Positions 19,102 to 63,880 of a DNA stretch of 64,000 nt are shown piece after piece. Made by a program: the position numbers and the translations under genes. The notes beneath the pieces were generated by a model. The model was not told the origin of the DNA. It did no database searches and saw only the letters and a program-made list of their open reading frames with translations. Position 1 is the stretch's first letter, and each line of letters begins with the position of its first letter. The stretch lies in assembly GCA_963924555.1 (NCBI GenBank), contig OZ004584.1, positions 5,517,001 to 5,581,000 of the forward strand, read 5' to 3'. Source of the stretch: Crambe crambe (lineage: Eukaryota; Porifera; Demospongiae; Poecilosclerida; Crambeidae).

Positions 19102-20484
19102 ATGATCACTCTTGACAATCAATGCTTTAATGTTCCTTCAAGCGACAAGCCTCAAAATCCATCCGGATCTGAAAAACAAGTTCCTTCAAGAGATGAGCCT
19201 CAAAGTCCGTCTGCACATGAAGATCTTGAGTCACAGTATAGAATGCCTGCTTGTAGTTGGATGTGTGGAATTTTACTGGTTGGATTCATCTTAGTAGGTA
19301 GTGCTGCATTTATTAGCTTGGGTCTTACCTCATGGAATATCAATTCCAACTTAAGGACACAAACTATGGGGCTTCAGGCTTCTAATGTAGCTGAACTTGA
19401 AAGAAGATTAGCACAGCTCCAGGTTTCTGTGAACAATAATACATTAGAATGTGACAAAAAGATATTGGAGCTTCGAAATGATAGTACATCTGAACTTGAA
19501 AGAAGATTAGCACAGCTTCAGGTTTCTGTGAACAATAATACATCGGAATGTGAAAGGAGAATAATGGAGCTTCGGAATAATACTACATCTGAACTCGAAA
19601 GAAGACTAACACAACTTCAGACATTTGAAAATAATCGCAATGATATTCAGAATAGGAATATTTCGTTATTGGTTAGGTCATTGACTGGTTTAGCTTCTTC
19701 ATGTTCTGCTTTCTTTGCAATGTATCCCTCCTCCCCATCAGGTCACTACTGGATCAGGTCCTCCAATGGCTCTGCTGTACATGTGTACTGCGACATGACC
19801 AGGTCCTGTGGTAACATCACTGGAGGGTGGATGAGAATGGCTAGTCTGAACTGGAGCAATGAATCTCTTCCATGTCCCGATGGATTCAGAGAACGCAGTG
19901 ACTCTGGCATCCACACTTGTGGAATCAACTCCACAACTGGTTCATGTCCTTCTTTGATTTTCGAAACATACGGCACAGAGTATAGTAGAGTCTGTGGCGA
20001 GATAAATGCTTATCAAGTTGGTACTCCTGATGCCTTTGGTCTGCATGGGCGTGGTTCAAACATAACAATTGACTCTAATTACGTGGATGGTGTTAGTCTT
20101 ACACATGGAAGCAATCCTAGGAGACACATCTGGACTTTTGTTGCTGCTCATGATGATTGGAGTAGTACCATATTTTTAGATAGTGTCTGTCAGTGTGTTA
20201 AACAAGGAATCATGGCCCCTCCTTCTTTTGTTGGCATGGACTACTTTTGTGATACAGGAAATCGTAAATCAGGAAGATCCTATACTCTTTTTGCTAGTGA
20301 TCCCCTGTGGGATGGGACTGGGTGCGCTTCTACTAGCAAATGCTGTTCCTTCAATAACCCCCCGTGGTTCCACAAGCAACTCCCATCAGCCACCACTGAC
20401 AACATAGAGATGAGGGTGTGTCGTGATGAGAACAGAAACAATGAAGACATTGCCATATCAAATGTTGAAATTTATGTACAGTAG
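19102..20484 (+). CDS. Type II membrane receptor, FReD-like ectodomain (copy A)
   Basis: 460 residues, single exon, no signal peptide. Cytoplasmic tail 1-50 holds two 16-residue VPSRDEPQ-type repeats; membrane segment about 55-76, preceded by CSWMC. The stalk has two 33-residue coiled-coil modules (ELERRLAQLQ...) plus a terminal module, with N-glycosylation sites. The ectodomain begins with a fibrinogen-like start (GHYWIRSSNG, VYCDMTRSCGN, GGWMR) and continues with VDGVSLTHG, FVGMDYFCDTG and CCSFNNPPWF; it has 14 cysteines and ends in EIYVQ. The ancestral start at 19089 reads AAG and 11 bases are missing, so translation must begin at 19102. The tail thus loses the YEMI tyrosine, and the second tyrosine is Phe (CFNVP). 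It may be a signalling-deficient member. Cell-surface recognition is inferred. Confidence 0.88.
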   Translation: MITLDNQCFNVPSSDKPQNPSGSEKQVPSRDEPQSPSAHEDLESQYRMPACSWMCGILLVGFILVGSAAFISLGLTSWNINSNLRTQTMGLQASNVAELERRLAQLQVSVNNNTLECDKKILELRNDSTSELERRLAQLQVSVNNNTSECERRIMELRNNTTSELERRLTQLQTFENNRNDIQNRNISLLVRSLTGLASSCSAFFAMYPSSPSGHYWIRSSNGSAVHVYCDMTRSCGNITGGWMRMASLNWSNESLPCPDGFRERSDSGIHTCGINSTTGSCPSLIFETYGTEYSRVCGEINAYQVGTPDAFGLHGRGSNITIDSNYVDGVSLTHGSNPRRHIWTFVAAHDDWSSTIFLDSVCQCVKQGIMAPPSFVGMDYFCDTGNRKSGRSYTLFASDPLWDGTGCASTSKCCSFNNPPWFHKQLPSATTDNIEMRVCRDENRNNEDIAISNVEIYVQ

Positions 20485-20889
20485 TGTGCTGAGACATCTT
20501 CACTATAAAGTAGTTTAGTGATTTTTACATTGTGTAACATTAACTATAGCTAAGACATGATATTGAGTGTTATCATATACTTTTATGTGCAAAACTTTAA
20601 CTGTTGTATAAAATGTTGTACAACTCTTTCTTTTTGAAACTGTAGTGTGTATCTGGTGGATGAGTGTTGATGGGATCATGTGACAGATGGTCAGGTCAAC
20701 TGCAATTTGTCTTATGATGGATGAGATCATGTGACTATCATATGACTCCACATTCACATATATGTACATGCCCCACTAGCTCCACTGACATGAGATCATG
20801 ACTACAGTGGCAGAGATACTGGGCCCCCCCCATTTGTTGTGGTGTACGTTTGTTGTGGTTGTGGTGTACGGTACTGCTCCTGGACTATA
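20485..20889. other. Receptor 3' flank and PTPN intron block
   Basis: It starts with the shared 3' sequence 'tgtgctgagacatcttcac'. From about 20650 it becomes the block found at position 1, leading into a PDZ exon remnant. Confidence 0.65.
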
Positions 20890-21014
20890 TCAGTACAGAT
20901 GAGCAGAATGCATTTAAGGAGTGGATAAGTCAAGTAAGCATTGAAGACCTTGCAGCTGAGGGGGTCTACTCCTCATCAGAATGCAGCCAGACCAACAAGG
21001 GAGGCATTGTCAAG
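20890..21014 (+). pseudogene. PTPN PDZ first-exon remnant
   Basis: Reads DEQNAFKEWISQVSIEDLAAEG and is then damaged relative to 44092 and 61193: an extra G and a missing 'tacggcttc' remove the PDZ carboxylate-binding loop. No neighbouring PTPN exons follow. Confidence 0.75.
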
Positions 21015-21464
21015 GTAGCTGGACAATATCCAGCTAGTATAGTATCTAATCTCATGTTCAGAATGGTTTTTTTATTTTTGTTTTATTGTCAACTATTTAA
21101 TCATTAATCAGAGAGAATGGTAGCTCTTTCTATGTAGGGATTGTGTGGACGCGGATGGGGGAAATAACCCCATCTAAGCTGATTACATGGCGTACCACCA
21201 GGGGGGCATACCTGATCCCAATGTGATTGAAGTATTGAACCAGTGCTAGCTACGCCACATATAGTCTAATACAAAAGTGAAATTCTAATTCTCCCCACTT
21301 GGACTTAACAAGAGCTACTGTGAATGTTACTATAGCTTAGCTACTATGTAGGTACAAGGTGCAGAACAAGTTTCAGGACCAGGGAGCTTACCATATGGCA
21401 AGCATGGATTTTTCTTCTCCATTATTCTTCTTCTTTTTCTTAGATGATCCAGGGATGCCTCTTC

Positions 21465-21830
21465 CTGGCTAGTCTGGACTGGAGCGATGAATCTCTTCCA
21501 TGTCCCGATGGATTCAGAGAACGCAGTGACTCTGGCATCCACACTCGTGGAATCAACTCGGTTCATGTCCTTCTTTGATTTTCAAAACATACAGCACTTT
21601 GTATAGTAGAGTCTGTGGCAAGATTAATGGTTATCAAGTGGGTACTACTGATACCTTCACTCTGTATGGGCGTGGTTCAAACACAGATATTGACTCTAAT
21701 TACGTGGATGGTGTTAGTCTTACTCATGGAAGCAATCCTAGGAGACACATCTGGACTTTTGTTGCAGCTCACAATGATGATATTGGATCGTCACCTGGAC
21801 CTAGCTACTGTCAGTCCTGTGGCTCTTAAT
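21465..21830 (+). pseudogene. Receptor ectodomain fragment
   Basis: The middle of a FReD-like receptor (LDWSDESLPCPDG through HIWTFVAAHNDD) with a frame break near 21560. No tail, membrane segment or C-terminus. Closest to the copy at 41770 (GRGSNTDIDSNY). Confidence 0.85.
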
Positions 21831-22064
21831 TATATGTGGCAATCATGTGACTATCATATGACTCCACATTGACATACATGTACATGCCCCACAGCATGGA
21901 TCAGTTGACTATCCAGATCACACATAGTGACACTCCACTGATATGAAATCATGTTGGACTAATACAAAGACTAATACATTTGACTATCCAGATCACACAT
22001 AGTGACACTCCACTGATATGAGATCATGTTGGACGCCGCATAATAGACTAATACAAACACCGAA

Positions 22065-23131
22065 AAGCAAGTTCCTTCAAGAGACGAGCCTCAAAATCCA
22101 TCTGCATATGAAGATCTTCGGTCACAGTATAGAATGCCTGCTTGTAGTTGGATGTGTGGAATTTTACTGGTTGGATTCATCTTAGTAGGTATATAGTGCT
22201 GCATTTATTAGCTTGGGTCTTACCTTATGGAATATCAATTCCAACTTAAAAACATAAACTATGGAAAGAAGACTAATGCAACTTCAGATAATTGAAAATA
22301 ATCACAATGATATTCAGGGTAATATTTTGAGGTCATTAGATTCTAAACTAAACAATATCATTCGCTCACTGACTGGACAATACTCGAATCTTGCAGCTGA
22401 TTCATGTTCCCATGTCTCACAGTTGAATCCCTCCTCCCCATCAGGTCACTACTGGATCAGGTCCTCCAATGGCTCTGCTGTGCGTGTGTACTGTGACATG
22501 ACCAGGTCCTGTGGAGAGTGGCTATAGTCTGGACTGGACCAATGAATCTCTTCCATGTCCCGATGAACACAATGACTCTGACAGTAAAATCGACTCCACA
22601 TCAATTGGTACATGTTCTTCTTTGATATTTGAAACGTACTGCGCAGCACTTTGTATAGTAGAGTCTGTGGCAAGATAAATGCTTATCAAGTCGGTTCTCC
22701 AGATGCATTCAGTACAACACATGGGCGTGTTCAAACACAACAATTGATTCTAGTCTTACACATGGAAGCAATCCTAGGGGACACATCTGGACTTTTGTTG
22801 CTGCTATTAATGATCTCTATATACTTATACTGTACATATCATTGTGTGAGACCAGGTGACAGCAGAATCATGCCCTCTCCTTCTTTTGTGGGAATGGATT
22901 ACTTTTGTGATACAGGAAGTCGAATAGAATCCTTTTTTTGGTAATGATCCCCTGTGGAATGGGGCTGGGTGTGCTTCTGCTAGCACGTGCTGTACCTTCA
23001 ATAATCCCCCGTGGTTCCACAAGCAACTCTCATCAGCCACCACTGACGACATAGAGATGAGGGTGTGTCTTGATGAGAGCAGAGACAATGAAGACATCGC
23101 CATATCATATGTTGAAATTTATGTACAGTAG
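22065..23131 (+). pseudogene. Receptor gene remnant with many lesions
   Basis: The full order of a receptor can be followed from tail repeat through membrane segment, neck, ectodomain and the final GTACAGTAG. Lesions include an ATAT insertion at about 22190, loss of part of the stalk near 22260, loss of the GGWMR region near 22512, and several frame changes up to 22940. The start region is missing. Confidence 0.88.
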
Positions 23132-23899: not shown

Positions 23900-23904
23900 T
23901 ATAA

Positions 23905-25527: not shown

Positions 25528-26790
25528 ATGGAAGGAGAAAGTGAATATGAAGTGATCACTCTTGACAATCAATGCTATAATGTTCCTTCAAGCGACAAGC
25601 CTCAAAATCTATCTGCATCTGAAAATGTAGTTCCTTCAAGAGACGAGCCTCAAAATCCGTCTGCGTATGAAGATCTTGAGTCACAGTATAGAATGCCTGC
25701 TTGTAGTTGGATGTGTGGAATTTTACTGATTGGATTCATCTTAGTAGGTAGTGCTGCATTCATTAGCTTGGGTCTTACCTCATGGAATATCAATTCCAAC
25801 TTAAGGACACAAACTATGGGGCTTCAGGCTTCTAATGTAGCTGAACTTGAAAGAAGACTAACACAACTTCAGATAATTGAAAATAATCGCAATGATATTC
25901 AGAGTAATATTTCAAGGTCATTAGATTCTAAACTAAACAATGTCATTCGATCACTGACTGGACAATACTCAAATCTTCCAGCTGATTCATGTTCACTTGT
26001 CTTGCAGTTGAATCCCTCCTCCCCATCAGGTGACTACTGGATCAGGTCTTCCAATGGCTCTGCTGTACGTGTGTACTGTGACATGACCAGGTCCTGTGGT
26101 AACATCACTGGAGGGTGGATGAGAGTGGCTAGTCTGGACTGGAGCAGTGAATCTCTTCCATGTCCCAATGAATTCAGAGAACGCAATGACTCTGACATCC
26201 GCACTTGTGGAATCAACTTCATAAATGGTTCATGTTCTTCTTTGATTTTCGAAACATACAGCACTTTGTATAGTAGAGTCTGTGGCAAGATAAATGCTTA
26301 TCAAGTTGGTACTCCTGATGCATTCAGTACAACACATGGGCGTTATTCAAGGATAACAATTGACTCTAATTACGTGGATGGTGTTAGTCTTACGCATGGA
26401 AACAATTCTAGGAGACACATCTGGACTTTTGTTACTGCTCATGATGATAACATTAGCGTCAGAGCAGATTTTGTATCTAGTACCTGTCGGTGTGTGAAGC
26501 CAGGTGATATAAGAATCTTTCCTTCTCCTTCTTTTGTGGGAATGGACTACTTCTGTGATACAGGAAGTCGGAATAGGTCACATGTTGGACAGTTTTACCC
26601 TGATGATCCCCTGTGGGATGGGGCTGGGTGTGCTTCTAATAGCACATGCTGTTCCTTCAATAACCCCCCGTGGTTCAACAAGCAACTCCCATCAGCCACC
26701 ACTGACGACATAGAGATGAGGGTGTGTCGTGATGAGGGCAGAAACAATGAAGACATCGCCATATCGAATGTTGAAATTTATGTACAGTAG
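25528..26790 (+). CDS. Type II FReD-like receptor (copy C), short stalk
   Basis: 420 residues. The start is the ATG in 'gtcatggaagg', matching the other copies; an in-frame ATG at 25435 is upstream of the family start. The tail has tyrosine motifs YEVI and YNVP six residues apart and two 16-residue repeats. The membrane segment follows CSWMC. The stalk has only the terminal coiled-coil module. The ectodomain has HDDNISVRADFVSSTCRC and NRSHVGQFYPDDP in its variable parts. The usual TATAAAAACAGCTTCAG promoter is absent: similarity to the other copies begins only about 50 bp before the ATG, so its promoter has been replaced. Confidence 0.9.
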   Translation: MEGESEYEVITLDNQCYNVPSSDKPQNLSASENVVPSRDEPQNPSAYEDLESQYRMPACSWMCGILLIGFILVGSAAFISLGLTSWNINSNLRTQTMGLQASNVAELERRLTQLQIIENNRNDIQSNISRSLDSKLNNVIRSLTGQYSNLPADSCSLVLQLNPSSPSGDYWIRSSNGSAVRVYCDMTRSCGNITGGWMRVASLDWSSESLPCPNEFRERNDSDIRTCGINFINGSCSSLIFETYSTLYSRVCGKINAYQVGTPDAFSTTHGRYSRITIDSNYVDGVSLTHGNNSRRHIWTFVTAHDDNISVRADFVSSTCRCVKPGDIRIFPSPSFVGMDYFCDTGSRNRSHVGQFYPDDPLWDGAGCASNSTCCSFNNPPWFNKQLPSATTDDIEMRVCRDEGRNNEDIAISNVEIYVQ

Positions 26791-30600: not shown

Positions 30601-30702
30601 CTGAGTTGGGGTACTATGACCCCTGGAAGCACCCCAAGAACTATGTGTGTCAAATCCAAATCATCCCCAAGCAGATGTTGGATTTTGATGAGAGAGTGTA
30701 GA
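30601..30702 (+). pseudogene. FERM exon remnant
   Basis: Same exon as 9592: reads ELGYYDPWKHPKNY and QMLDFDERV, then TAG. Isolated, without neighbouring FERM exons. Duplicated at 54101-54202. Confidence 0.75.
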
Positions 30703-30889
30703 TATTCATTACTCACTCTCGTGATCTTAAAGTATGAGCCAAAAAAGCTATGTATCATGTAAGACTATTTCCAAGAGACATTTTTGAAATGTAGCTATGT
30801 ACTGTTTATTAACCTATCAGATTTTTTATAAGTGCAAAGCTTGAATGATTTATGGTAAGAAAAGATTAGTTGCGTATATTGAGTATTAT

Positions 30890-31694: not shown

Positions 31695-33062
31695 ATGGAT
31701 GAAAATATCTATGAGCCAATGGATGGCAAGGAAGCTGATGCATCTATTAACAAAAATCCTTGCTACGGTACGTCTTCAGACATCAAGCTGGAAAGTATGT
31801 CTTCAGACATCAAGCTGGAAAGTGCAACATCTCCTCCGGTGAAATCCAAATCCAACAAACCTATTTGTAGTTGGTTGTGCATGTGTGCACTAATTGGATT
31901 GATCTTAGTAGGTAGTGCAGCATTTGCTAGCTTGGCTCTTACAGTGTGGAATTCTTCACAAGTCAATGACGCTAAGCTTGAGATGGAACACATGATAACA
32001 CAGCTCAAGAATTCTGTATCTGGATTTGATACTTCTGTGAATATATCTGAACAAGTGAACGTTTCAAGATCATTGGAAATACGAATTGATGATATCTTAC
32101 TACAGTTGAATCATACTACATCTGAACTTGAAAGAAGACTAACACGACTTCAGATAATTGAAAATAATCGCAATGATATTCAGAGGAATATTTCGAGGTC
32201 GTTAGATTCTAAACTAAACAGTATCATTCGGTCATTGACTGGACAGTACTTGAATCTTCCAGCTGATTCATGTTCCCTTGTCTTGCAGCTGAATTCCTCC
32301 TCCCCATCAGGTCACTACTGGATCAGATCCGCCAATGGCTCTGCTGTACGTGTGTACTGTGACATGACCAGGTCATGTGGTAACATCACTGGAGGGTGGA
32401 TGAGAGTGGCTAGTCTGAACTGGAGCAATGAATCTCTTCCATGTCCCGATGGATTCAGAGAACGCAATGACTCTGACATCCGCACTTGTGGAATCAACTC
32501 CACAAGTGGTTCGTGTCGTTCTTTGATTTTTGAAACATACAGCACTTTGTATAGTAGAGTCTGTGGCAAGATAAATGCTTATCAAGTTGGTACTCTGGAT
32601 GCATTCAGTACAATGCAAGGGCGTGGTTCAAACATAACAATTGACTCTAATTACGTGGATGGTGTTAGTCTTACGCATGGAAGCGATCCTAGGAGACACA
32701 TCTGGACTTTCGTTGCTGCTCATGATGATCGCCCTAGTATAGTAAGTTCACTGATCTGTCAATGTGTGAGACCAGGTGACAGTAGAATCATGCCCCCTCC
32801 TACTTTTGTGGGAATGGACTACTTCTGCGATACAGGAAGTCGAAGAAGAAATTCATTTGGTAAATTTCTTGCTGATGATCCCCTGTGGGATGGGGCTGGG
32901 TGTGCTTCTAATAGCACATGCTGTTCCTTCAATAACCCCCCGTGGTTCCACAAGCAACTCCCATCAGCCACCACTGACGACATAGAGATGAGGGTGTGTC
33001 GTGATGAGAGCAGACACAATGAAGACATCGCCATATCAAATGTTGAAATTTATGTGCAGTAG
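31695..33062 (+). CDS. Type II FReD-like receptor (copy E), divergent tail
   Basis: 455 residues. The tail differs from all other copies: it opens MDENIYEPMDG, with a YxxM motif of the kind bound by PI3-kinase p85 SH2 domains, then CYGTS and two SSDIKLES repeats. Membrane segment after CSWLC. The stalk uses a unique coiled coil (KLEMEHMITQLKN...) before the shared terminal module. The ectodomain is standard with 14 cysteines and variable parts RPSIVSSLICQC and RRNSFGKFLADDP. It looks like a fusion of a different tail and stalk to the common ectodomain. The copy at 55199 encodes the same protein. Confidence 0.92.
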   Translation: MDENIYEPMDGKEADASINKNPCYGTSSDIKLESMSSDIKLESATSPPVKSKSNKPICSWLCMCALIGLILVGSAAFASLALTVWNSSQVNDAKLEMEHMITQLKNSVSGFDTSVNISEQVNVSRSLEIRIDDILLQLNHTTSELERRLTRLQIIENNRNDIQRNISRSLDSKLNSIIRSLTGQYLNLPADSCSLVLQLNSSSPSGHYWIRSANGSAVRVYCDMTRSCGNITGGWMRVASLNWSNESLPCPDGFRERNDSDIRTCGINSTSGSCRSLIFETYSTLYSRVCGKINAYQVGTLDAFSTMQGRGSNITIDSNYVDGVSLTHGSDPRRHIWTFVAAHDDRPSIVSSLICQCVRPGDSRIMPPPTFVGMDYFCDTGSRRRNSFGKFLADDPLWDGAGCASNSTCCSFNNPPWFHKQLPSATTDDIEMRVCRDESRHNEDIAISNVEIYVQ

Positions 33063-34806: not shown

Positions 34807-36165
34807 ATGGAAAAAGAAAATGATTATGAAAACGATAGTTATGATATGATGATTATTGACAATCAATGCTATAATGTTCCTTCAAGAGCTGAGCCTCAAA
34901 ATTTGTCTGCGTCTAAAAATCAAATTCCTTCAATAACTGAGCCTCAAAATGAGACTGTATCTGCAAATCTTCATCCTATTAAGTCACAGTATAAAATGTC
35001 TGCTTGTAGTTGGAAATGTGCAATTTTACTGGTTGGATTCATCTTAGTAGGTAGTGCTGCATTCATTAGCTTGGGTCTTACCTTATGGAATATCAATTCC
35101 AACTTTAAAACACAAACTATGGGGCTCCAAGCTTCTAATGTAGCTGAACTTGAACGAAGATTAGCACAGCTTCAGGTTTCTGTGAATAATAATACATCAG
35201 AATGTGAAAGAAAAATACTGGAGCTTCGAAATTTATCAAATGACAGTATATCTGAACTCGAAAGAAGTCTAATGCAACTTCAGATATTTGAAAATAATCG
35301 CAATGATATTCAGAGTAATATTTCAAACTCATTAGATTCTAAATTAAACAATATAATTCGATCACTGACTGGACAATACTCAAATCTTCCGGCTGATTCA
35401 TGTTCCCTTGTCTTGCAGTTGAATTCTTCCTCCCCATCAGGGCACTACTGGATCAGGTCCTTCAATGGCTCTGCTGTGCATGTGTACTGTGACATGACCA
35501 GGTCCTGTGGTAACATCACTGGAGGGTGGATGAGAGTGGCTAGTCTGGACTGGAGCAATGAATCTCTTCCATGTCCCGATGGACTCAGAGAACGCAATGA
35601 CTCTGACATCCGCACTTGTGGAATCAACTCCACAACTGGTTCATGTTCTTCTTTGATTTTCAAAACATACAGCACTTTGTATAGTAGAGTCTGTGGCAAG
35701 ATTAATGGTTATCAAGTTGGTACTACTGATGCATGGCGTGGTTCAAACATAACAATTGACTCTAATTACGTGGATGGTGTCAGTCTCACGTATGGAAGCA
35801 ATCCTAGAAGACACATCTGGACTTTTGTTGCTGCTCATGATGATATATATTCTGAAACATGTCAGTGTATGAGACCAGGTGACAGCAGAATCATGGCTTC
35901 TCCTTCTTTTGTGGGAATGGACTACTTCTGTGATACAGGAAATCGGGGAGGAGATCCATCTGGTTTATTTCTTGCTAATGATCCCCTGTGGGATGGGGCT
36001 GGGTGTGCTTCTACTAGCACATGCTGTTCCTTCAATAACCCCCCGTGGTTCCACAAGCAACTCCCATCAGCCACCACTGATGACATAGAGATGAGGGTGT
36101 GTCGTGATGAGAGCAGACGCAATGAAGACATTGCCATATCGAATGTCGAAATTTATGTGCAGTAG
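34807..36165 (+). CDS. Type II FReD-like receptor (copy F)
   Basis: 452 residues. The tail has three tyrosines: YEND, YDMM (a YxxM motif) and YNVP, then two diverged 16-residue repeats. Membrane segment after CSWKC. The stalk has one coiled-coil module lengthened by three residues (NLSNDSIS) plus the terminal module. The ectodomain is standard; variable parts are short (TTDAWRGSN, HDDIYSETCQC, GGDPSGLFLANDP). Intact frame; damaged sisters at 39841 and 58920. Confidence 0.92.
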   Translation: MEKENDYENDSYDMMIIDNQCYNVPSRAEPQNLSASKNQIPSITEPQNETVSANLHPIKSQYKMSACSWKCAILLVGFILVGSAAFISLGLTLWNINSNFKTQTMGLQASNVAELERRLAQLQVSVNNNTSECERKILELRNLSNDSISELERSLMQLQIFENNRNDIQSNISNSLDSKLNNIIRSLTGQYSNLPADSCSLVLQLNSSSPSGHYWIRSFNGSAVHVYCDMTRSCGNITGGWMRVASLDWSNESLPCPDGLRERNDSDIRTCGINSTTGSCSSLIFKTYSTLYSRVCGKINGYQVGTTDAWRGSNITIDSNYVDGVSLTYGSNPRRHIWTFVAAHDDIYSETCQCMRPGDSRIMASPSFVGMDYFCDTGNRGGDPSGLFLANDPLWDGAGCASTSTCCSFNNPPWFHKQLPSATTDDIEMRVCRDESRRNEDIAISNVEIYVQ

Positions 36166-40590: not shown

Positions 40591-40593
40591 TAA

Positions 40594-41769: not shown

Positions 41770-43182
41770 ATGGAAGAAGAAAATGAATATGAAGTGATAA
41801 CTGATGACGATCAGTACTATACTGTTCCTTCAAGAGCCAAGCCTCAGAATCCATCTGCATCTGAAAATCAAGTTCCTTCAAGAGATGAGCCTCAAAATCC
41901 ATCTGCATCCGAAAATCAAGTTCCTTCAAGAGTCGAGCCTCAAAATGCATCTGTATCTGCAAATCTTTATCAGATTAGGTCACAGTATAAAATGCCTGCT
42001 TGTAGTTGGATGTGTGCATTTTTACTGGTTGGATTCATCTTAGTAGGTAGTGCTGCATTCATTAGCTTGGGTCTTACCTTATGGAATATCAATTCCAACT
42101 TTAAAACACAAACTATGGGGCTCCAGGCTTCTAATGTAGCTGAACTTGAAAGAAGATTAACACAGCTTCAGGTTTCTGTGAACAATAATACATCAGAATG
42201 TGAAAGAAAAATACTGGAGCTTCGGAATTTATCAAATGACAGTATATCTGAACTCGAAAGAAGTCTAATACAAATTCAGATATTTGAAAATAATCGCAAT
42301 GACATTCAGAGTAATATTTCAAAGTCATTAGATTCTAAACTAAACAATATCATTCGATCATTGACTGGACAATACTCGAATCTTCCGGCTGATTCATGTT
42401 CCCTTGTCTTGCAGTTGAATTCCTCCTCCCCATCAGGTCACTACTGGATCAGATCCTCCAATGGCTCTGCTGTACGTGTGTACTGTGACATGACCAGGTC
42501 CTGTGGTAACATCACTGGAGGGTGGATGAGAGTGGCTAGTCTGGACTGGAGCAATGAATCTCTTCCATGTCCCGATGGATTCAGACAACGCAGTGACTCT
42601 GGCATCCACTCTTGTGGAATCAACTCCACAACTGGTTCATGTCCTTCTTTGATTTTCAAAACATACAGCACTTTGTATAGTAGAGTCTGTGGCAAGATTA
42701 ATGGTTATCAAGTGGGTACTACTGATGCCTTCGCTCTGTATGGGCGTGGTTCAAACACAGATATCGACTCTAATTACGTGGATGGTGTTAGTCTTACACA
42801 TGGAAGCAATCCTAGGAGACACATCTGGACTTTTGTTGCAGCTCATAATGATGACATTAGATCGTTACCTGGACCTAGTTACTGTCAGTGTGTGAGACCA
42901 AGTGATATGGGAATCATGCCCCCTCCTTCTTTTGTGTGAATAGATTACTTCTGTGATACAGGAAATCGGAGAGGAAATCCATATGGTTTATTTCTTGCTG
43001 ATGATCCCCTGTGGGATGGGGCTGGTTGTGCTTCTACTAGCACATGCTGTTCCTTCAATAACCCCCCGTGGTTCCACAAGCAACTCCCACCAGCCACCAC
43101 TGACGACATAGAGATGAGGGTGTGTCGTGATGAGGGCAATGAAAACATCGCTATATCGAATGTTGAAATTTATGTACAGTAG
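41770..43182 (+). pseudogene. Type II FReD-like receptor (copy I) with one nonsense codon
   Basis: The tail has YEVI and YYTVP tyrosines and three 16-residue repeats; stalk of one lengthened module plus terminal module. The ectodomain has TTDAFALYGRGSNTDID and HNDDIRSLPGPSYCQC. A single base change turns GGA into TGA at 42937-42939 inside FVGMDYFCDTG. The frame then stays open and recognisable to the family stop at 43180-43182. It would make 389 residues lacking the last quarter. Either a young pseudogene or a truncated product. Confidence 0.88.
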
Positions 43183-48663: not shown

Positions 48664-50235
48664 ATGGAAGAAGAAAATCAATATGAAATGATCACTCTTG
48701 ACAATCAATGCTATAATGTTCCTTCAAGTGACAAGCCTCAAAATCCATCTGGATCTGAAAAACGAGTTCCTTCAAGAGACGAGCCTCAAAATTTATCCAG
48801 ATCTGAAAAACAAGTTCCTTCAAGAGATGAGCCTCAAAATCTGTCTGCATATGAAGATCTTAAGTCACAGTATAAAATGCCTGCTTGTAGTTGGATGTGT
48901 TTTATTTTACTGGTTGGATTCATCTTAGTAGGTAGTGCTGCATTCATTAGCTTGGGTCTTACCTCATGGAATATCAACTCCAACTTAAGGACAAAAACTA
49001 TAGGGCTTCAGGCTTCTAATGTAGCTGAACTTGAAAGAAGATTAGCACAGCTTCAGGTTTCTGTGAACAATAATACATTGGAATGCGACAGAAAGCTATT
49101 AGAGCTTCGAAATGACAGTACATCTGAACTTGAAAGAAGATTAGCACAGCTTCAGGTTTCTGTGAACAATAATACATTGGAATGCGACAGAAAGCTATTA
49201 GAGCTTCGAAATGACAGTACATCTGAACTTGAAAGAAGATTAACACAGCTTCAGGTTTCTCTGAACAATAATACATCAGAATGTGAAAGGAGAATAATGG
49301 AGCTTCGGAATGATACTACATCTGAACTCGAAAGAAGACTAACACAACTTCAGACATTTGAAAATAATCGCGATGATATTCAGAATAGGAATATTTTGTT
49401 ATTGGTTAGGTTATTAACTGGTTTAGCTTCTTCATGTTCTGCTATCTTTGCAATGTATCCCTCCTCCCCATCAGGTCACTACTGGATCAGGCACTCCAAT
49501 GGCTCTGCTGTACGTGTGTACTGTGACATGACCAGGTCCTGTGGTAACATCACTGGAGGGTGGATGAGAGTGGCTAGTCTGGACTGGAGCAATGAATCTC
49601 TTCCATGTCCCAATGAATTCAGAGAACGCAATGACTCTGACATCCGCACTTGTGGAATCAACTTCATAAATGGTTCATGTTCTTCTTTGATTTTCGAAAC
49701 ATACAGCACTTTGTATAGTAGAGTCTGTGGCAAGATAATTGCTTATCAAGTAGGTACTCCAGATGCATTCAGTACAATGCAAGGGCGTGGTTCAAGGATA
49801 ACAATCGACTCTAATTACGTGGATGGTGTTAGTCTCACGCATGGAAGCAATCCTAGGAGACACATCTGGACTTTTGTTACTGCTCATGATGATAACATTA
49901 GAGTCAGAGCAGATTTTGTATCTAGTATCTGTCGGTGTGTGAAGCCAGGTGATATAAGAATCCTTCCTTCTCCTTCTTTTGTGGGAATGGACTACTTCTG
50001 TGATACAGGAAGTCGGAATAGGTCACATGTTGGACAGTTTAACCCTGATGATCCCCTGTGGGATGGGGCTGGGTGTGCTTCTAATAGCAGATGCTGTTCT
50101 TTCAATAACCCCCCGTGGTTCAACAAGCAACTCCCATCAGCCACCACTGACGACATAGAGATGAGGGTGTGTCGTGATGAGGGCAGAAACAATGAAGACA
50201 TCGCCATATCGAATGTTGAAATTTATGTACAGTAG
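48664..50235 (+). CDS. Type II FReD-like receptor (copy J), longest stalk, chimeric
   Basis: 523 residues, the longest copy. The tail has YEMI and YNVP six residues apart and three 16-residue repeats. Membrane segment after CSWMC. The stalk has three 33-residue modules in exact 99-bp steps (module starts 49027, 49126, 49225) and the terminal module at 49324. The neck (LVRLLTGLASSCSAIF) is that of copies A and N, but from about 49530 the ectodomain is that of copy C (CPNEFRERNDSDIR, NIRVRADFVSSICRC, NRSHVGQFNPDDP), and the 3' flank also follows C. This indicates exchange within the gene. Confidence 0.93.
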   Translation: MEEENQYEMITLDNQCYNVPSSDKPQNPSGSEKRVPSRDEPQNLSRSEKQVPSRDEPQNLSAYEDLKSQYKMPACSWMCFILLVGFILVGSAAFISLGLTSWNINSNLRTKTIGLQASNVAELERRLAQLQVSVNNNTLECDRKLLELRNDSTSELERRLAQLQVSVNNNTLECDRKLLELRNDSTSELERRLTQLQVSLNNNTSECERRIMELRNDTTSELERRLTQLQTFENNRDDIQNRNILLLVRLLTGLASSCSAIFAMYPSSPSGHYWIRHSNGSAVRVYCDMTRSCGNITGGWMRVASLDWSNESLPCPNEFRERNDSDIRTCGINFINGSCSSLIFETYSTLYSRVCGKIIAYQVGTPDAFSTMQGRGSRITIDSNYVDGVSLTHGSNPRRHIWTFVTAHDDNIRVRADFVSSICRCVKPGDIRILPSPSFVGMDYFCDTGSRNRSHVGQFNPDDPLWDGAGCASNSRCCSFNNPPWFNKQLPSATTDDIEMRVCRDEGRNNEDIAISNVEIYVQ

Positions 50236-51131: not shown

Positions 51132-52250
51132 ATGGAAGAGGAAAATTATGAAATGATCACTCTTGACAATCAATGCTATAATGTTACTTCAAGAGACAAG
51201 CCTCAAAATCCATCTGCATCTGAAAAACAGGTTCCTTCAATAGACAAACCTCAAAATCCATCTACATATGAAAATCTTAAGTCACAGTATACAATGCCTG
51301 CTTGTAGTTGGATGTGTGCAATTTTACTGGTTGGATTCATTTTGGTAGGTAGTGCTGCATTTATTAGCTTGGGTCTCATTCAGAGTAATATTTCAAGGTC
51401 GTTAGATTCAAAACTAAACAATGTCATTCGGTCGTTGACTGGACAATACTTGAGTCTTCCAGCTGATTTGTGTTCCCATGTCTTGCAGTTGAATCCCTTC
51501 TCCCCATCAGATCACTACTGGATCAGATCCTCCAATGGCTCTGCTGTACATGTGTACTGTGACATGACCAGGTCCTGTGGTAACATCACTGGAGGGTGGA
51601 TGAGAGTGGCTAGTCTGAACTGGAGCAATGAATCTCTTCCATGTCCTGATTGATTCAGAGAACGCAGTGACTCTGGCATTCATACTTGTGGAATTGGCTC
51701 CACATCAACTGGTTCATGTTCTACTTTGACCTTTGAAACATACAGCACTGTGTATAGTAGAGTCTGTGGCAAGATAAATGCTTATCAAGTTGGTTCTACT
51801 GATGCATTTGATACACGACAACGTCATGGCAATATAACAATTGACTCTAATTACGTGGATGGTGTCAGTCTCACGCATGGAAGCAATCCTAGAAGACACA
51901 TCTGGACTTTTGTTGCTGCTCATGATGATCGTTATATATATTCTGAAACATGTCAGTGTACGAGACCAGGTGACAGCAGAATCATGGCTCCTCCTTCTTT
52001 TGTGGGAATGGATTACTTTTGTGATACAGGAAGTCGAACAGGAGTAGTGCATAATTCTTTCTTTGGTAATGATTCCCTGTGGGATGGGACTGGGTGTGCT
52101 TCTGCTAGCACATGCTGTTCCTTCAATAACCCCCCGTGGTTCCACAAGCGACTCCCATCAGCCACCACTGATGACATAGAGATGAGGGTGTGTCTTGATG
52201 AGGACACAGGAGACATTGCCATATCGAATGTTGAACTTTATGTGCAGTAG
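51132..52250 (+). pseudogene. Stalk-less receptor copy K with one nonsense codon
   Basis: The tail has YEMI and YNVT and two repeats. The membrane segment joins directly to the neck, so no coiled-coil modules. A single GGA-to-TGA change at 51651-51653 (in PCPDGFRER) interrupts an otherwise open 372-codon frame, which resumes through DTRQRHGNITID, RYIYSETCQCTRPG and TGVVHNSFFGND to the family C-terminus. Young pseudogene or truncated product. Confidence 0.88.
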
Positions 52251-54100: not shown

Positions 54101-54202
54101 CTGAGTTGGGGTACTATGACCCCTGGAAGCACCCCAAGAACTATGTGTGTCAAATCCAAATCATCCCCAAGCAGATGTTGGATTTTGATGAGAGAGTGTA
54201 GA
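54101..54202 (+). pseudogene. FERM exon remnant, duplicate
   Basis: Duplicate of 30601-30702. Confidence 0.75.
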
Positions 54203-55133: not shown

Positions 55134-55141
55134 TATATAAA
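55134..55141 (+). promoter_or_regulatory. TATA box of receptor copy L
   Basis: TATATAAA, 65 bp before the ATG, as in copy E. Confidence 0.65.
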
Positions 55142-55198
55142 GTATTGTATCAATGCTCAATTCTTATTCTTGAATACTGAATTAGTCAATTTCCAAGA

Positions 55199-56566
55199 AT
55201 GGATGAAAATATCTATGAGCCAATGGATGGCAAGGAAGCTGATGCATCTATTAACAAAAATCCTTGCTACGGTACGTCTTCAGACATCAAGCTGGAAAGT
55301 ATGTCTTCAGACATCAAGCTGGAAAGTGCAACATCTCCTCCGGTGAAATCCAAATCCAACAAACCTATTTGTAGTTGGTTGTGCATGTGTGCACTAATTG
55401 GATTGATCTTAGTAGGTAGTGCAGCATTTGCTAGCTTGGCTCTTACAGTGTGGAATTCTTCACAAGTCAATGACGCTAAGCTTGAGATGGAACACATGAT
55501 AACACAGCTCAAGAATTCTGTATCTGGATTTGATACTTCTGTGAATATATCTGAACAAGTGAACGTTTCAAGATCATTGGAAATACGAATTGATGATATC
55601 TTACTACAGTTGAATCATACTACATCTGAACTTGAAAGAAGACTAACACGACTTCAGATAATTGAAAATAATCGCAATGATATTCAGAGGAATATTTCGA
55701 GGTCGTTAGATTCTAAACTAAACAGTATCATTCGGTCATTGACTGGACAGTACTTGAATCTTCCAGCTGATTCATGTTCCCTTGTCTTGCAGCTGAATTC
55801 CTCCTCCCCATCAGGTCACTACTGGATCAGATCCGCCAATGGCTCTGCTGTACGTGTGTACTGTGACATGACCAGGTCATGTGGTAACATCACTGGAGGG
55901 TGGATGAGAGTGGCTAGTCTGAACTGGAGCAATGAATCTCTTCCATGTCCCGATGGATTCAGAGAACGCAATGACTCTGACATCCGCACTTGTGGAATCA
56001 ACTCCACAAGTGGTTCGTGTCGTTCTTTGATTTTTGAAACATACAGCACTTTGTATAGTAGAGTCTGTGGCAAGATAAATGCTTATCAAGTTGGTACTCT
56101 GGATGCATTCAGTACAATGCAAGGGCGTGGTTCAAACATAACAATTGACTCTAATTACGTGGATGGTGTTAGTCTTACGCATGGAAGCGATCCTAGGAGA
56201 CACATCTGGACTTTCGTTGCTGCTCATGATGATCGCCCTAGTATAGTAAGTTCACTGATCTGTCAATGTGTGAGACCAGGTGACAGTAGAATCATGCCCC
56301 CTCCTACTTTTGTGGGAATGGACTACTTCTGCGATACAGGAAGTCGAAGAAGAAATTCATTTGGTAAATTTCTTGCTGATGATCCCCTGTGGGATGGGGC
56401 TGGGTGTGCTTCTAATAGCACATGCTGTTCCTTCAATAACCCCCCGTGGTTCCACAAGCAACTCCCATCAGCCACCACTGACGACATAGAGATGAGGGTG
56501 TGTCGTGATGAGAGCAGACACAATGAAGACATCGCCATATCAAATGTTGAAATTTATGTGCAGTAG
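55199..56566 (+). CDS. Type II FReD-like receptor (copy L), same protein as E
   Basis: 455 residues with the same amino-acid sequence as the product of 31695-33062, including the YEPM tail, unique stalk and ectodomain loops. Lies in the 3.4-kb duplicate. Either a very recent duplication or an assembly artefact (collapsed haplotypes placed in tandem). The different right-hand neighbours argue for a real event. Confidence 0.92.
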   Translation: MDENIYEPMDGKEADASINKNPCYGTSSDIKLESMSSDIKLESATSPPVKSKSNKPICSWLCMCALIGLILVGSAAFASLALTVWNSSQVNDAKLEMEHMITQLKNSVSGFDTSVNISEQVNVSRSLEIRIDDILLQLNHTTSELERRLTRLQIIENNRNDIQRNISRSLDSKLNSIIRSLTGQYLNLPADSCSLVLQLNSSSPSGHYWIRSANGSAVRVYCDMTRSCGNITGGWMRVASLNWSNESLPCPDGFRERNDSDIRTCGINSTSGSCRSLIFETYSTLYSRVCGKINAYQVGTLDAFSTMQGRGSNITIDSNYVDGVSLTHGSDPRRHIWTFVAAHDDRPSIVSSLICQCVRPGDSRIMPPPTFVGMDYFCDTGSRRRNSFGKFLADDPLWDGAGCASNSTCCSFNNPPWFHKQLPSATTDDIEMRVCRDESRHNEDIAISNVEIYVQ

Positions 56567-57194
56567 TGTGCTGAGACATCTTCACTATAAAGTAGTTTAG
56601 TGACTTTATATAATACATTAACACTATAATCATGAGTGTTAGCTATCATACTTTTATATGTGAAAACTGTTGTAGAACTTGGTAGAATTTTTCTTTTTGA
56701 AACTTGTGGTGGTTGAGTACAAATGTGCTGTTGGAGTGGTATCGGCAAGGGAGTAACAAGCAAATTCGAATTGGTCAGGACACAACCACACCCTTAATGG
56801 GTGTGTCCTAACTACAGCCATCAATCATGACATTGTAATCAATTATCGAAAATAGAGTCTATACTGAGAATCACCAATGGATTCACTAGCTACAGCTGTG
56901 ATATTAGCTAGTGTCTACAATAACTTTTCACTCTGCCTCAGTGAGCTGAAATATTTTGGGAAGTTAAATCTTAGTGTGGAATCAAACCACCAGATATTCT
57001 GCTTATAGCTATTAAAATTCCTAACATAACAGAACTTCAGATTTTGGAGAATCTAAGTCACAAGATGCTTCAGATCTGGTTGTTTATCAAGCTATAATGA
57101 ACGCTTTAATGAAAGTGTGTACTGCACACTAAATTGTCCCAAAACACACTAAAAACACTAAAAACAAAGTATTGAGACAAAATGGTGTGCAGTC

Positions 57195-57644
57195 AATTAT
57201 CTGAAGTCGTGTTAGTCTTCTTTCAAGTTCAGATGTAGTATGATTCAACTGTAGTAAGATATCATCAATTCGTATTTCCAATGATCTTGAAACGTTCACT
57301 TGTTCAGATATATTCACAGAAGTATCAAATCCAGATACAGAATTCTTGAGCTGTGTTATCATGTGTTCCATCTCAAGCTTAGCGTCATTGACTTGTGAAG
57401 AATTCCACACTGTAAGAGCCAAGCTAGCAAATGCTGCACTACCTACTAAGATCAATCCAATTAGTGCACACATGCACAACCAACTACAAATAGGTTTGTT
57501 GGATTTGGATGTTGCACTTTCCAGCTTGATATCTGAAGACATACTTTCCAGCTTGATGTCTGAAGATGTACCGTAGCAAGGATTTTTGTTAATAGATGCA
57601 TCAGCTTCCTTGCCGTCCATTGGCTCATAGATATTTTCATCCAT
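57195..57644 (-). pseudogene. Inverted 5' fragment of receptor E/L
   Basis: Reverse-strand copy of the tail, membrane segment and stalk of copy E (MDENIYEPMDG through ERRLTRLQI), ending where the terminal module starts. Compared with E it lacks five codons (PPVKS region). Part of a foldback rearrangement; no ectodomain follows. Confidence 0.9.
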
Positions 57645-58919: not shown

Positions 58920-60318
58920 ATGGAAAAAGAAAATGATTATGAAAACGATAGTTATGATATGATGATTATCGACAATCAATGCTATAATGTTCCTTCAAGA
59001 GCTGAGCCTCAAAATTTGTCTGCGTCTAAAAATCAAATTCCTTCAATAACTGAGCCTCAAAATGAGACTGTATCTGCAAATCTTCATCCTATTAAGTCAC
59101 AGGATAAAATGTCTGCTTGTAGTTGGAAGTGTGCAATTTTACTGGTTGGATTCATCCTAGTAGGTAGTGCTGCATTCATTAGCTTGGGTCTTACCTTATG
59201 GAATATCAATTCCAACTTTAAAACACAAACTATGGGGCTCCAAGCTTCTAATGTAGCTGAACTTGAAAGAAGATTAGCACAGCTTCGGGTTTCTGTGAAT
59301 AATAATACATCAGAATGTGAAAGAAAAATACTGGAGCTTCGGAATTTATCAAATGACAGTATATCTGAACTCGAAAGAAGTAAGTCTAATGCAACTTCAG
59401 ATATTTGAAAATAATCGCAATGATATTCAGAGTAATATTTCAAACTCATTAGATTCTAAATTAAACAATATAATTCGATCACTGACTGGACAATACTCAA
59501 ATCTTCCGGCTGATTCATGTTCCCTTGTCTTGCAGTTGAATTCTTCCTCCCCATCAGGGCACTACTGGATCAGGTCCTCCAATGGCTCTGCTGTGCATGT
59601 GTACTGTGATATGACCAGGTCCTGTGGTAACATCACTGGAGGGTGGATGAGAGTGGCTAGTCTGGACTGGAGCAATGAATCTCTTCCATGTCCCGATGGA
59701 CTCAGAGAACGCAATGACTCTGACATCCGCACTTGTGGAATCAACTCCACAACTGGTTCATGTTCTTCTTTGATTTTCAAAACATACAGCACTTTGTATA
59801 GTAGAGTCTGTGGCAAGATTAATGGTTATCAAGTTGGTACTCCAGATGCATTCAGTACAAGTACAATGCAAGGGCGTGGTTCAAACATAACAATTGACTC
59901 TAATTACGTGGATGGTGTTAGTCTTACACATGGAAACAAGCCTAGGAGACACATTTGGACTTTTGCTGCTACCCACCGGGATGGCCCTGGACTATTACGT
60001 TATCCAGATAGTATCTGTCAGTGTGTGAGACCAAGTGATATGAGCATCATGACTCCTTCTTTTGTGGGAATGGACTACTTCTGTGATACAGGAAATCGGG
60101 GAGGAGATCCATTTGGTTTATTTCTTGCTGATGATCCCCTGTGGGATGGGGCTGGGTGTACTTCTACTAGCACATGCTGTACCTTCAATAACCCCCCGTG
60201 GTTCCACAAGCAACTCCCATCAGCCACCACTGACGACATAGAGATGAGGGTGTGTTGTGATGAGAGCAGAGACAATGAAGACATTGCCATATCGAATGTT
60301 GAAATTTATGTACAGTAG
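58920..60318 (+). pseudogene. Receptor copy M, sister of F, with a 4-bp frameshift
   Basis: The tail (YEND, YDMM, YNVP), membrane segment and first stalk module match F. A 4-bp insertion near 59382 (AAGTAAGTC for AAGTC) shifts the frame, ending it at 59408; the second frame (59317-60318) carries the rest of the stalk and a complete ectodomain. The second half differs from F, with longer variable parts (DAFSTSTMQGRG, THRDGPGLLRYPDSICQC), so the C-terminal half came from another paralog. The insertion also makes a GTAAGT word; no matching acceptor was evident. Confidence 0.88.
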
Positions 60319-61502: not shown

Positions 61503-62331
61503 TATCCTTTAGGAGATAAAAGACAAAAAAAAATAAGGTTAAGTAGGGATAGCCTAAAATCCAGCTAGATTTTAGCCCGGTATCACTACTATAGGTATAT
61601 TTTACACTCATTGTATTATGCATATCACCTCCTTTCATGTCCTAACAATAACTGATATGTGTTCAATGTTGTAGTTTATTATGCACCCACCATGCAGAGT
61701 ACTAAACCATGTGTTATGTAAGTGTGCAACAAACTGAAAACAAAGTGTTATATGCACCTATATAGCTCTAGTACTACCTAAGCTGCTAACATTAGACCTA
61801 ACAAGTTCAGTAATTACCACTCCAGTGCATCACTAGTCATGTGGACAGTTCCTTCTCCTACACCTTTACAGAGTTGTTTCTACCACACAGTGGACTATTT
61901 TCGAGGAGTAAAATTTCATGTTAATGGGAAAATGGGTTAAATTTTCATGGATGGTTGGTTGGTGTAGTGCATGCAGCTGTAGCAATGTGTGCTATGATTA
62001 TGTGCAACTAAACATCTATTGTCTAAACATATGAAGTGAGCTGCAAGAGTCTGTGCTAGAAGTAGAAGTTGTGACTATGACTAACTCATTTGTGGCAGAA
62101 ATCCAGTCATGGATCATACATAGCATACAACTTAAGCCTTCCTGACATGGACAATCTTCCACAGCAACTTTCTTCACCAGAGAATTTGCTGATAAGATGG
62201 TACTATCCTTGAAAAGGTCCCATGGGAATCCAGAAGACAAATCTTGGTTAAATTAGTAAATTTTCGTTGATTTAGGGTATCCACAAAAACCGAACAAAAA
62301 AAACAACAAAAAAAAAAGTGATATAAAAACA
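61503..62331 (+). repeat. Palindromic-repeat piece and duplicated upstream block of receptor N
   Basis: A piece of the 28482 repeat family (about 61535-61600) is followed by the third copy of the 18300 block. Confidence 0.75.
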
Positions 62332-62339
62332 GCTTCAGT
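62332..62339 (+). promoter_or_regulatory. TATA box of receptor copy N
   Basis: TATAAAAA in the conserved core, 116 bp before the usable ATG. Confidence 0.78.
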
Positions 62340-62447
62340 TCACAGCAAGAAGCAGTTGTCCTATTGACATCTCCACACAGTCAATTATGAATTAACTATC
62401 ATTCTCTGCAAGAGTTCAGCTATCTGTCCTTAGCAAGGAAGGAGGAA

Positions 62448-63880
62448 ATGATCACTCTTGACAATCAATGCTTTAATGTTCCTTCAAGCGACAAGCCTCA
62501 AAATCCATCTGGATCTGAAAAACGAGTTCCTTCAAGAGACGTGCCTCAAAATTCGTCCAGATCTGAAAAACGAGTTCCTTCAAGAGATGAGCCTCTAAAT
62601 CCGTCTGCATATGAAGATCTTGAGTCACAGTATAGAATGCCTGCTGTAGTTGGATGTGTTTTATTTTACTGGTTGGATTCATCTTAGTAGGTAGTGCTGC
62701 ATTTATTAGCTTGGGTCTTACCTCATGGAATATCAATTCCAACTTAAGGACACAAACTATGGGGCTTCAGGCTTCTAATGTAGCTGAACTTGAAAGAAGA
62801 TTAGCACAGCTCCAGGTTTCTGTGAACAATAATACATTGGAATGCGACAGAAAGATATTGGAGTTTCGAAATGACAGTACATCTGAACTCGAAAGAAGAT
62901 TAGCACAGTTTCAGGTTTCTGTGAACAATTATACATCAGAATGTGAAAGGAGAATAATGGAGCTTCGGAACGATACTACATCTGAACTCGAAAGAAGACT
63001 AACACAACTTCAGACATTTGAAAATAATCGCGATGATATTCAGAATAGGAATATTTTGTTATTGGTTAGGTCATTGACTGGTTTAGCTTCTTCATGTTCT
63101 GCTATCTTTGCAATGTATCCCTCCTCCCCATCAGGTCACTACTGGATCAGGCACTCCAATGGCTCTGCTGTGCGTGTGTACTGTGACATGACCAGGTCAT
63201 GTGGTAACATCACTGGAGGGTGGATGAGAGTGGCTAGTCTGAACTGGAGCAATGAATCTCTTCCATGTCCCGATGGATTCAGAGAACACAATGACTCTGG
63301 CATCCGCACTTGTGGAATCAACTCCACATCAACTGGTTCATGTTCTTCTTTGATCTTCAAAACATACAGCACTGTGTATAGTAGAGTCTGTGGCAAGATA
63401 AATGCTTATCAAGTTGGTTCTACTGATGCATTTGATACACGACAACGTCATGGCAATATAACAATTGACTCTAATTACGTGGATGGTGTCAGTCTCACGC
63501 ATGGAAGCAATCCTAGAAGACACATCTGGACTTTTGTTGCTGCTCATGATGATCGCTATATATATTCTGAAACATGTCAGTGTACGAGACCAGGTGACAG
63601 CAGAATCATGGCTCCTCCTTCTTTTGTGGGAATGGATTACTTTTGTGATACAGGAAGTCGAATGGAAGCACAAATTAGACAATTTTACCCTGATGATCCC
63701 CTGTGGAATGGGGTTGGGTGTGCTTCTACTAGCATGTGCTGTTCCTTCAACAACCCCCCGTGGTTCCACAAGCAACTCCCATCAGCCACCACTGATGACA
63801 TAGAGATGAGGGTGTGTCGTGATGAGAGCAGAAACAATGAAGACATTGCCATATCAAATGTTGAAATTTATGTACAGTAG
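62448..63880 (+). pseudogene. Receptor copy N, tyrosine-less tail, one-base frameshift
   Basis: As in copy A, the family start reads AAG, the YEMI region is missing, and the second motif is CFNVP. The tail has three 16-residue repeats. One T is missing near 62643, just before the membrane segment, splitting the gene into 62448-62687 and 62654-63880. The second frame encodes an intact membrane segment, two stalk modules, terminal module, A-type neck and a K/D-type ectodomain (DTRQRHGNITID, RYIYSETCQC) with MEAQIRQFYPDDP. It could start at 62654 (MCFILLVG), giving a protein with almost no tail. Confidence 0.87.

What the first reader, a model, noticed from the sequence alone, without database searches (positions are those of the whole stretch)
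19102..63880. Tandem array of intronless type II receptors with a fibrinogen-like Cys-rich ectodomain: candidate recognition-receptor cluster
About 14 copies or fragments in 45 kb share tail, Cys-flanked membrane segment, coiled-coil stalk and a roughly 270-residue ectodomain. Only the first part (GHYWIR, VYCDM, GGWMR) resembles a fibrinogen-related domain; the rest (VDGVSLTHG, FVGMDYFCDTG, CCSFNNPPWF) is a family-specific module. Many near-identical genes, fresh pseudogenes and chimeras are what immune or allorecognition loci look like. Function is inference.
Basis: partly seen in the sequence, partly recalled or inferred. Interest (0 to 1): 0.88.

Follow-up and report, generated by a model that had tools for sequence, protein, structure and literature searches.

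The report
Sponge receptor array with hypervariable loops
A sponge chromosome carries a fast-changing cluster of cell-surface receptor genes whose outer parts are nearly identical except for two short, highly variable loops, which looks like a system for recognising many different targets, although nobody has yet shown what it binds.

Summary
The array is real: 16 copies or fragments (not about 14) at 19099-63880, six uninterrupted. The genome is almost certainly the demosponge Crambe crambe, chromosome 4 (7 of 7 contig lengths agree). The type II layout holds: disordered tyrosine-rich tail, long helices (membrane, stalk), one compact C-terminal fold. The 'family-specific module' is not specific: 6641 database proteins match the ectodomain, Amphimedon has it, a bacterial protein matches it, and its core pattern occurs 226 times in this genome. 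The nearest whole-length fold is the procollagen C-propeptide. New here: 21 of 276 ectodomain residues, in two loops, hold a third of the variation; the same loops are among the five most variable windows in four other arrays; loop types are reshuffled between paralogs; YxxPhi motifs are enriched in tails. Best reading: a recognition-receptor family diversified by duplication and gene conversion; ligand and role (immunity, allorecognition) are inference. Against: loop pN/pS is about 1, and only one of five apparent haplotype pairs differs in the loops.

The parts
19102..20484 (+). copy 1, uninterrupted, 460 aa; starts at MITLDN, so it lacks the first tail tyrosine
21453..21784 (+). copy 2, ectodomain fragment in two frames
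22051..23128 (+). copy 3, pseudogene with frameshifts and stops
25528..26790 (+). copy 4, uninterrupted, 420 aa
27673..28489 (+). copy 5, tail and rest in different frames; ectodomain match ends at residue 346, inside the first variable loop
31695..33062 (+). copy 6, uninterrupted, 455 aa; reference for residue numbers; chimeric, with a different tail type
31695..31865 (+). copy 6 cytoplasmic tail (residues 1-57), predicted disordered, with YEPM and NPCY
31866..32237 (+). copy 6 membrane segment plus stalk (residues 58-181), predicted as helices 58-112 and 117-181
32256..33059 (+). copy 6 ectodomain (residues 188-455)
32724..32756 (+). copy 6 hypervariable loop HV1 (residues 344-354)
32844..32873 (+). 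copy 6 hypervariable loop HV2 (residues 384-393)
34807..36165 (+). copy 7, uninterrupted, 452 aa
37291..37902 (+). copy 8, N-terminal fragment in two frames, with stops
39841..40678 (+). copy 9, N-terminal half; family match ends near residue 242
41770..43179 (+). copy 10, full length with one in-frame TGA
48664..50235 (+). copy 11, uninterrupted, 523 aa, with extra 99-bp stalk repeats
51132..52247 (+). copy 12, tail to end with one in-frame TGA; short stalk
55199..56566 (+). copy 13, uninterrupted, protein identical to copy 6
57192..57644 (-). copy 14, inverted N-terminal fragment (residues 1-156)
58920..60318 (+). copy 15, two frames (tail and stalk in one, ectodomain in another)
62445..63880 (+). 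copy 16, ectodomain open, tail in another frame

Best explanation
A tandem array of type II cell-surface recognition receptors of a demosponge. Each intact copy has a short cytoplasmic tail with tyrosine motifs, one membrane helix, a helical stalk of variable length and a C-terminal fibrinogen/procollagen-propeptide-like ectodomain. Two loops (residues 344-354 and 384-393 of the 31695 protein) form the variable, probably ligand-contacting part on a conserved scaffold. Duplication creates copies, and gene conversion moves loops, ectodomains and tails between them. Ligand binding would lead to tyrosine phosphorylation of the tail (SH2 partners) or to uptake (NPxY). Shown by computation: the array, layout, loop variability, reshuffled loop combinations and tail-motif enrichment. 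Inferred: conversion as the cause, surface display, loops as binding site, signalling, and a role in telling microbes or other sponges from self.
For: Array and block duplications. Confident ectodomain model, pLDDT 90.5 and pTM 0.90; long helices plus disordered tail. 130 of 276 ectodomain sites invariant among 19 paralogs, while 21 residues (7.6%) hold 33% of the entropy; 0 of 5000 position shuffles reach the clustering. pN/pS is 1.44 in HV1, 0.92 in HV2 and 0.51 elsewhere; HV exceeds the rest in 100 of 100 bootstraps over genes. Windows at both loops are among the five most variable in 4 of 4 other single-contig arrays tested. Loop types recombine: some pairs share HV1 but not HV2 and others the reverse. 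YxxPhi motifs: 33 in 17 of 18 Crambe tails against 8.9 expected, and 58 in 43 of 48 other tails against 24.5; NPxY: 22 in 20 of 48 against 0.6. P0001, not encoded by the primary assembly, differs from 31695 at 21 of 455 residues, 10 of them in the loops (9 in HV1, 1 in HV2).
Against: The pooled HV pN/pS interval is 1.00-1.26, so relaxed constraint is not excluded. Silent changes are also high in the loops, which points to imported blocks or misaligned gaps as well as selection. Of five apparent pairs between database contig 826,340 and the primary assembly, only P0001 differs in the loops; P0002, P0018 and P0019 differ elsewhere and P0026 not at all. In sets nearest Amphimedon the variation is spread more widely and NPxY is absent (1 of 88 tails). 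NPxY in Crambe tails alone is not significant (2 of 18, 82 of 1000 shuffles). Other stretches also vary in some arrays (for example one near residue 358 ranks first in one array). No expression, binding or population data. 50 of 146 examined sequences show no membrane-like segment in the first 250 residues, so part of the wider family may be secreted or incomplete.
Confidence: 0.6

Rival explanations
1. Allorecognition: the array encodes the polymorphic self/non-self receptors (or ligands) that decide fusion or rejection between sponges.
For: A variant protein absent from the primary assembly differs mainly in one loop; reshuffled loop combinations; known allorecognition loci of other animals are polymorphic (general knowledge). 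In an Amphimedon graft study the authors saw no significant enrichment for aggregation-factor adhesion genes, so other players are possible (passage seen in PMC5450542).
Against: Four of five apparent haplotype pairs do not differ in the loops; I lowered this from 0.15 to 0.12 for that reason. No population data. The module pattern is present 226 times on several contigs, unlike one small locus.
Confidence: 0.12
2. Relaxed constraint: the two loops simply tolerate change and indels, and gene conversion mixes them; variation has no recognition role.
For: Pooled HV pN/pS of 1.00-1.26 includes neutrality; loops vary in length; silent differences are also raised.
Against: Both loops rank among the most variable windows in several separate arrays while their flanks stay conserved; whole loop types are kept and reused between copies.
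Confidence: 0.2
3. Feeding or particle-capture lectins of filter cells: diversity serves capture of many food bacteria rather than defence.
For: Lectin-like fold neighbours (intelectin, carbohydrate-binding modules); NPxY, an uptake motif in other receptors (recalled), in 20 of 48 tails of the second set.
Against: Nothing specific; cannot be told apart from an immune role by sequence.
Confidence: 0.2
4. Structural collagen-like or matrix adhesion proteins with a procollagen C-propeptide domain.
For: Best whole-length structural match is the procollagen C-propeptide; Pfam COLFI matches 48 of 75 aligned relatives at E<=0.01.
Against: No Gly-X-Y collagen stretch seen in the six uninterrupted window proteins (read); COLFI is below its cut-off in 4 of 4 window proteins and covers only positions up to 85 of its 233; hypervariable loops and tyrosine tails are not expected.
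Confidence: 0.05

Closest known systems
Amphimedon queenslandica 'Fibrinogen C-terminal domain-containing protein' and 'uncharacterized protein LOC...' (P0214, P0242, P0243, P0245, P0306, P0333)
   Same: Same ectodomain module; P0214 has the same type II layout with tail tyrosines
   Different: Named only by automatic annotation; in sets nearest Amphimedon variation is spread more widely and NPxY is nearly absent
FIBCD1, ficolins and other fibrinogen-related (FReD) lectins
   Same: Start motif of the domain; FIBCD1 is also type II with a stalk and C-terminal domain (recalled); ficolin is a weak fold match (E 0.041)
   Different: Pfam Fibrinogen_C not reported for any of 4 proteins at E<=1 or 75 relatives at E<=0.01; the rest of the domain is a different module
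Intelectins (XEEL, human intelectin-1)
   Same: Sequence match over the first ~70 ectodomain residues (E 0.0022); weak fold match (E 0.0045-0.011)
   Different: Remainder does not align in sequence; intelectins are secreted (recalled)
Fibrillar procollagen C-propeptide (COLFI)
   Different: Low TM-scores (0.29-0.46); no collagen helix seen; below Pfam cut-off in the window proteins
Ly49/NKR-P1-type natural killer receptors of vertebrates
   Same: Works like: clustered multigene type II receptors with cytoplasmic tyrosine motifs, stalk and lectin-like head (recalled)
   Different: Different head fold (no C-type lectin Pfam match); no evidence of common descent
Snail FREPs and other diversified invertebrate fibrinogen-related proteins
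   Same: Diversified recognition family (recalled)
   Different: Secreted, with Ig domains and a true fibrinogen domain (recalled)

Membership tests
Fibrinogen-related domain proteins (FReD, PF00147) | Profile match to Pfam Fibrinogen_C | tested here: not met
   Not reported for 4 window proteins at E<=1 or any of 75 relatives at E<=0.01
Fibrinogen-related domain proteins (FReD, PF00147) | Conserved start motif YCDxxxxGGGW | tested here: met
   NCBIfam NF040941 37.5 and 34.6 bits against cut-off 30 in 2 of 2 proteins
Fibrillar collagen C-propeptide (COLFI, PF01410) | Profile match above gathering score | tested here: not met
   17.0-20.3 bits against 26.2 in 4 of 4 window proteins; 48 of 75 relatives match at E<=0.01, a looser limit
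Fibrillar collagen C-propeptide (COLFI, PF01410) | Same fold | tested here: inconclusive
Intelectins (X-type lectins) | Whole-domain similarity | tested here: inconclusive
C-type-lectin natural killer receptors (Ly49 type) | C-type lectin head domain | tested here: not met
   No such Pfam match in 4 proteins at E<=1
C-type-lectin natural killer receptors (Ly49 type) | Cytoplasmic ITIM-like motif | tested here: met
   [SIVLT]xYxx[ILV], a loose form: 11 in 10 of 18 Crambe tails (2.0 expected, 0 of 1000 shuffles), 15 in 14 of 48 others (6.5, 0 of 1000), 21 in 14 of 88 Amphimedon-like tails (13.8, 16 of 500); phosphorylation untested
Allorecognition receptors | Polymorphism that predicts fusion or rejection | not testable with these tools
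   Only one assembly plus unnamed database proteins; 1 of 5 apparent pairs differs in the loops
Immune recognition receptors | Expression in, or response of, immune-like cells | not testable with these tools
   No expression data at hand

The most novel reading that the evidence does not exclude
Sponges carry a large germline-encoded receptor system with two CDR-like loops on a fixed scaffold, recombined by gene conversion and linked to tyrosine signalling tails. In encrusting sponges such as Crambe it is the long-sought allorecognition or microbe-discrimination receptor repertoire, built on a module shared with bacterial proteins.
Probability: 0.22. Interest if true: 0.93.

Novelty: new variant of a known kind. 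Interest (0 to 1): 0.72.

Why it matters
Sponges tell self from non-self and live with dense microbial communities, yet the receptors behind this are poorly known. The two sponge immune studies of which I saw passages work with Pfam-type domains such as NACHT, SRCR and Fibrinogen_C (PMC12909245; PMC6208332). This family has no Pfam model of its own and scores, if at all, as a collagen end domain, so I infer that such counts would largely miss it. If the two loops are the binding site, the question which sponge genes recognise microbes or other sponges becomes directly testable by loop sequencing, binding assays and grafts.

Tried and rejected
Rejected: 'family-specific module'. Rejected as proof of haplotype diversity: P0001, P0002, P0018, P0019, P0026, P0028 and P0034 share an 826,340-bp database contig. 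P0001 is absent from G000 (best match 95%), but P0028 and P0034 are 100% identical to G000 at C6:6.235-6.237 Mb. This fits a second haplotype of the 5.42-6.24 Mb region, but the contig is unnamed and the point is unproven; and of the five proteins with a counterpart in the fetched loci, four do not differ in the loops. On recheck I found that I had credited HV1 with 10 differences in P0001 (it is 9, plus 1 in HV2) and had left out those four pairs; I lowered the allorecognition rival from 0.15 to 0.12 and the novel case from 0.25 to 0.22. Rejected: a true fibrinogen domain over the whole ectodomain. Nothing found: plasmid records, viral contigs (14 pattern matches, no relative), Rfam at gathering threshold, tRNAs. 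Prokaryote genomes gave one relative from 13 pattern matches. Literature: ten searches; one was made to identify the organism, nine asked about the family or sponge recognition, and in their listings, and in passages of the three papers I opened from them, I saw no description of this family; four motif strings from the ectodomain were in 0 papers. Subscription papers are not held. Hydrophobic periodicity gave weak support for a coiled coil.
Full report
What is in the window. The window is G000:C6:5517001-5581000 of a 143.1-Mb genome. Seven contigs whose lengths I saw (9.566, 9.684, 9.494, 9.083, 8.844, 7.569 and 6.799 Mb) match seven chromosomes of the Crambe crambe assembly after rounding (Table 2 of PMC12166358, passages seen; the paper gives 143.20 Mb in 124 scaffolds, against 119 contigs here). 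Silicatein-like exons of up to 88% identity to a recalled probe agree with a demosponge. The window therefore lies on chromosome 4 of Crambe crambe, an inference from lengths.

The array. tblastn with window proteins finds 16 copies or fragments between 19099 and 63877, and none in the reversed sequence (first look). Six are uninterrupted from tail to end (19102, 25528, 31695, 34807, 48664, 55199). Two carry one in-frame TGA (41770, 51132). 58920 and 62445 are open in pieces in different frames. The rest are fragments or worn pseudogenes. Blocks 30263-33691 and 53755-57195 are 99.0% identical: 0 differences in 1,368 coding bases, 1 in 629 bases downstream, and 8 substitutions plus 5 gaps in 1,432 bases upstream. 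Since silent sites are also unchanged, conversion of the coding part or a very recent copy explains this better than purifying selection (inference). The 31695 type is a chimera: against the 19 of 23 paralogs with at least 68 alignable positions in tail plus membrane segment, identity there is 19-51% but 78-88% in the ectodomain; its listed nucleotide matches of 800 bp or more to other copies, apart from its own duplicate, begin between 32117 and 32261. Three copies have 99-bp stalk repeats, and 48-bp tail repeats occur in eight; the number of stalk units differs between paralogs.

Layout. AlphaFold of the full 455-aa protein gives a disordered tail (residues 1-55, pLDDT under 50), helices 58-112 and 117-181, then a compact beta-rich domain (mean pLDDT 77.4). 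The ectodomain alone is predicted well (pLDDT 90.5, pTM 0.90). The coding regions are single open frames, hence intronless as read; introns in untranslated parts cannot be excluded.

Hypervariable loops. Of 30 loci, 26 gave an ORF passing my filter (L013, L020, L021 and L029 did not). I aligned 24 (L010 left out as identical to L009, L025 because its frame departs near the end) and used 19 for statistics (L028 and L035-L038 dropped as divergent). 130 of 276 ectodomain sites never vary. Residues 344-354 and 384-393, 21 of 276, hold 33% of the total entropy; 0 of 5000 permutations of positions reach the clustering. Among the 24 there are 21 distinct HV1 and 20 distinct HV2 sequences. pN/pS is 1.44 in HV1, 0.92 in HV2 and 0.51 elsewhere; the pooled HV interval is 1.00-1.26 over 100 bootstraps, so selection beyond neutrality is not shown. 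As replication I took groups of homologs lying on one database contig each (9, 6, 6 and 5 proteins): in 4 of 4 the windows starting at 343-346 and 382-384 are among the five most variable (HV1 0.51-0.66, HV2 0.61-0.66, rest 0.15-0.22), though another window ranks first or second in two of them. In four sets nearest Amphimedon (7, 5, 4 and 3 proteins), HV1 stays among the three most variable windows, but HV2 ranks second to sixth and stretches near 269, 303-306, 358, 421 and 434-440 also vary. Loop types are reshuffled: L011 and L017 share HV1 but not HV2; L011 and L019 share HV2 but not HV1; L023 and L031 have the same HV2 with unlike HV1.

Signs of allelic change. Database protein P0001 equals 31695 but for 21 of 455 residues, 20 of them from residue 186 on and 10 in the loops (9 in HV1, 1 in HV2); its best match in the primary assembly is 95%. 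The deposited second haplotype (PMC12166358) is the likely source, but the contig is unnamed. Against a general rule: on the same contig P0026 is identical to its counterpart, and P0002 (1 difference), P0018 (11) and P0019 (differences near 305-315 and 327 within its aligned part) differ from theirs outside the two loops; two more proteins are 100% identical to the primary assembly.

Tails. Among tails of at least 25 residues before a membrane-like segment (22 of 26 Crambe ORFs, 18 after removing repeats; 51 of 92 others, 48 after), YxxPhi motifs number 33 (8.9 expected by shuffling) and 58 (24.5); NPxY 2 (0.5; not significant) and 22 (0.6). In the Amphimedon-like set (94 of 108, 88 after) YxxPhi is 97 against 51.9, found in 43 of 88 tails, and NPxY is 1. 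So tyrosine motifs are a family trait, NPxY only of part of it.

Explanation. The best-supported reading is a recognition-receptor family: fixed scaffold, two variable loops, signalling or uptake tail, diversified by duplication and conversion. It works like clustered type II lectin-like receptors such as Ly49 (recalled), without being one. What it recognises is open. In Dysidea avara, genes with the Pfam fibrinogen domain change expression, up or down, on exposure to microbial patterns (passages of PMC6208332); whether any belong to this family is unknown. Relaxed constraint in the loops is the main rival.

Noticed in passing
window 1394-6441 and 9673-15051: Two LTR retroelements with identical terminal repeats (256 and 300 nt, 100%), hence probably young. 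Pfam order in both puts the integrase before the reverse transcriptase, as recalled for Gmr1-like elements.
   Followed up: partly
window 7967-8767 and 45255-46113: An 87%-identical repeat outside the receptor genes, one copy left of the array and one inside it.
   Followed up: no
window 31276-31635 and 54772-55139: A 130-134-bp tandem repeat (2.8 copies) just upstream of both identical genes; may be regulatory or only duplicated with them.
   Followed up: no
L042:1535-2383 and P0121-P0130: The ectodomain module occurs in a small group of apparently bacterial proteins, by look lipoproteins. Old shared domain or gene transfer is open.
   Followed up: partly
G000:C15:865000-887000: Silicatein-like exons in at least three like units about 5 kb apart, apparently a recent tandem multiplication of a spicule gene.
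   Followed up: no
P0013, P0020, P0030, P0066: Homologs with two or three ectodomain modules in one chain, and others (P0029, P0038, P0057) with several fibrinogen-like starts before one module.
   Followed up: no
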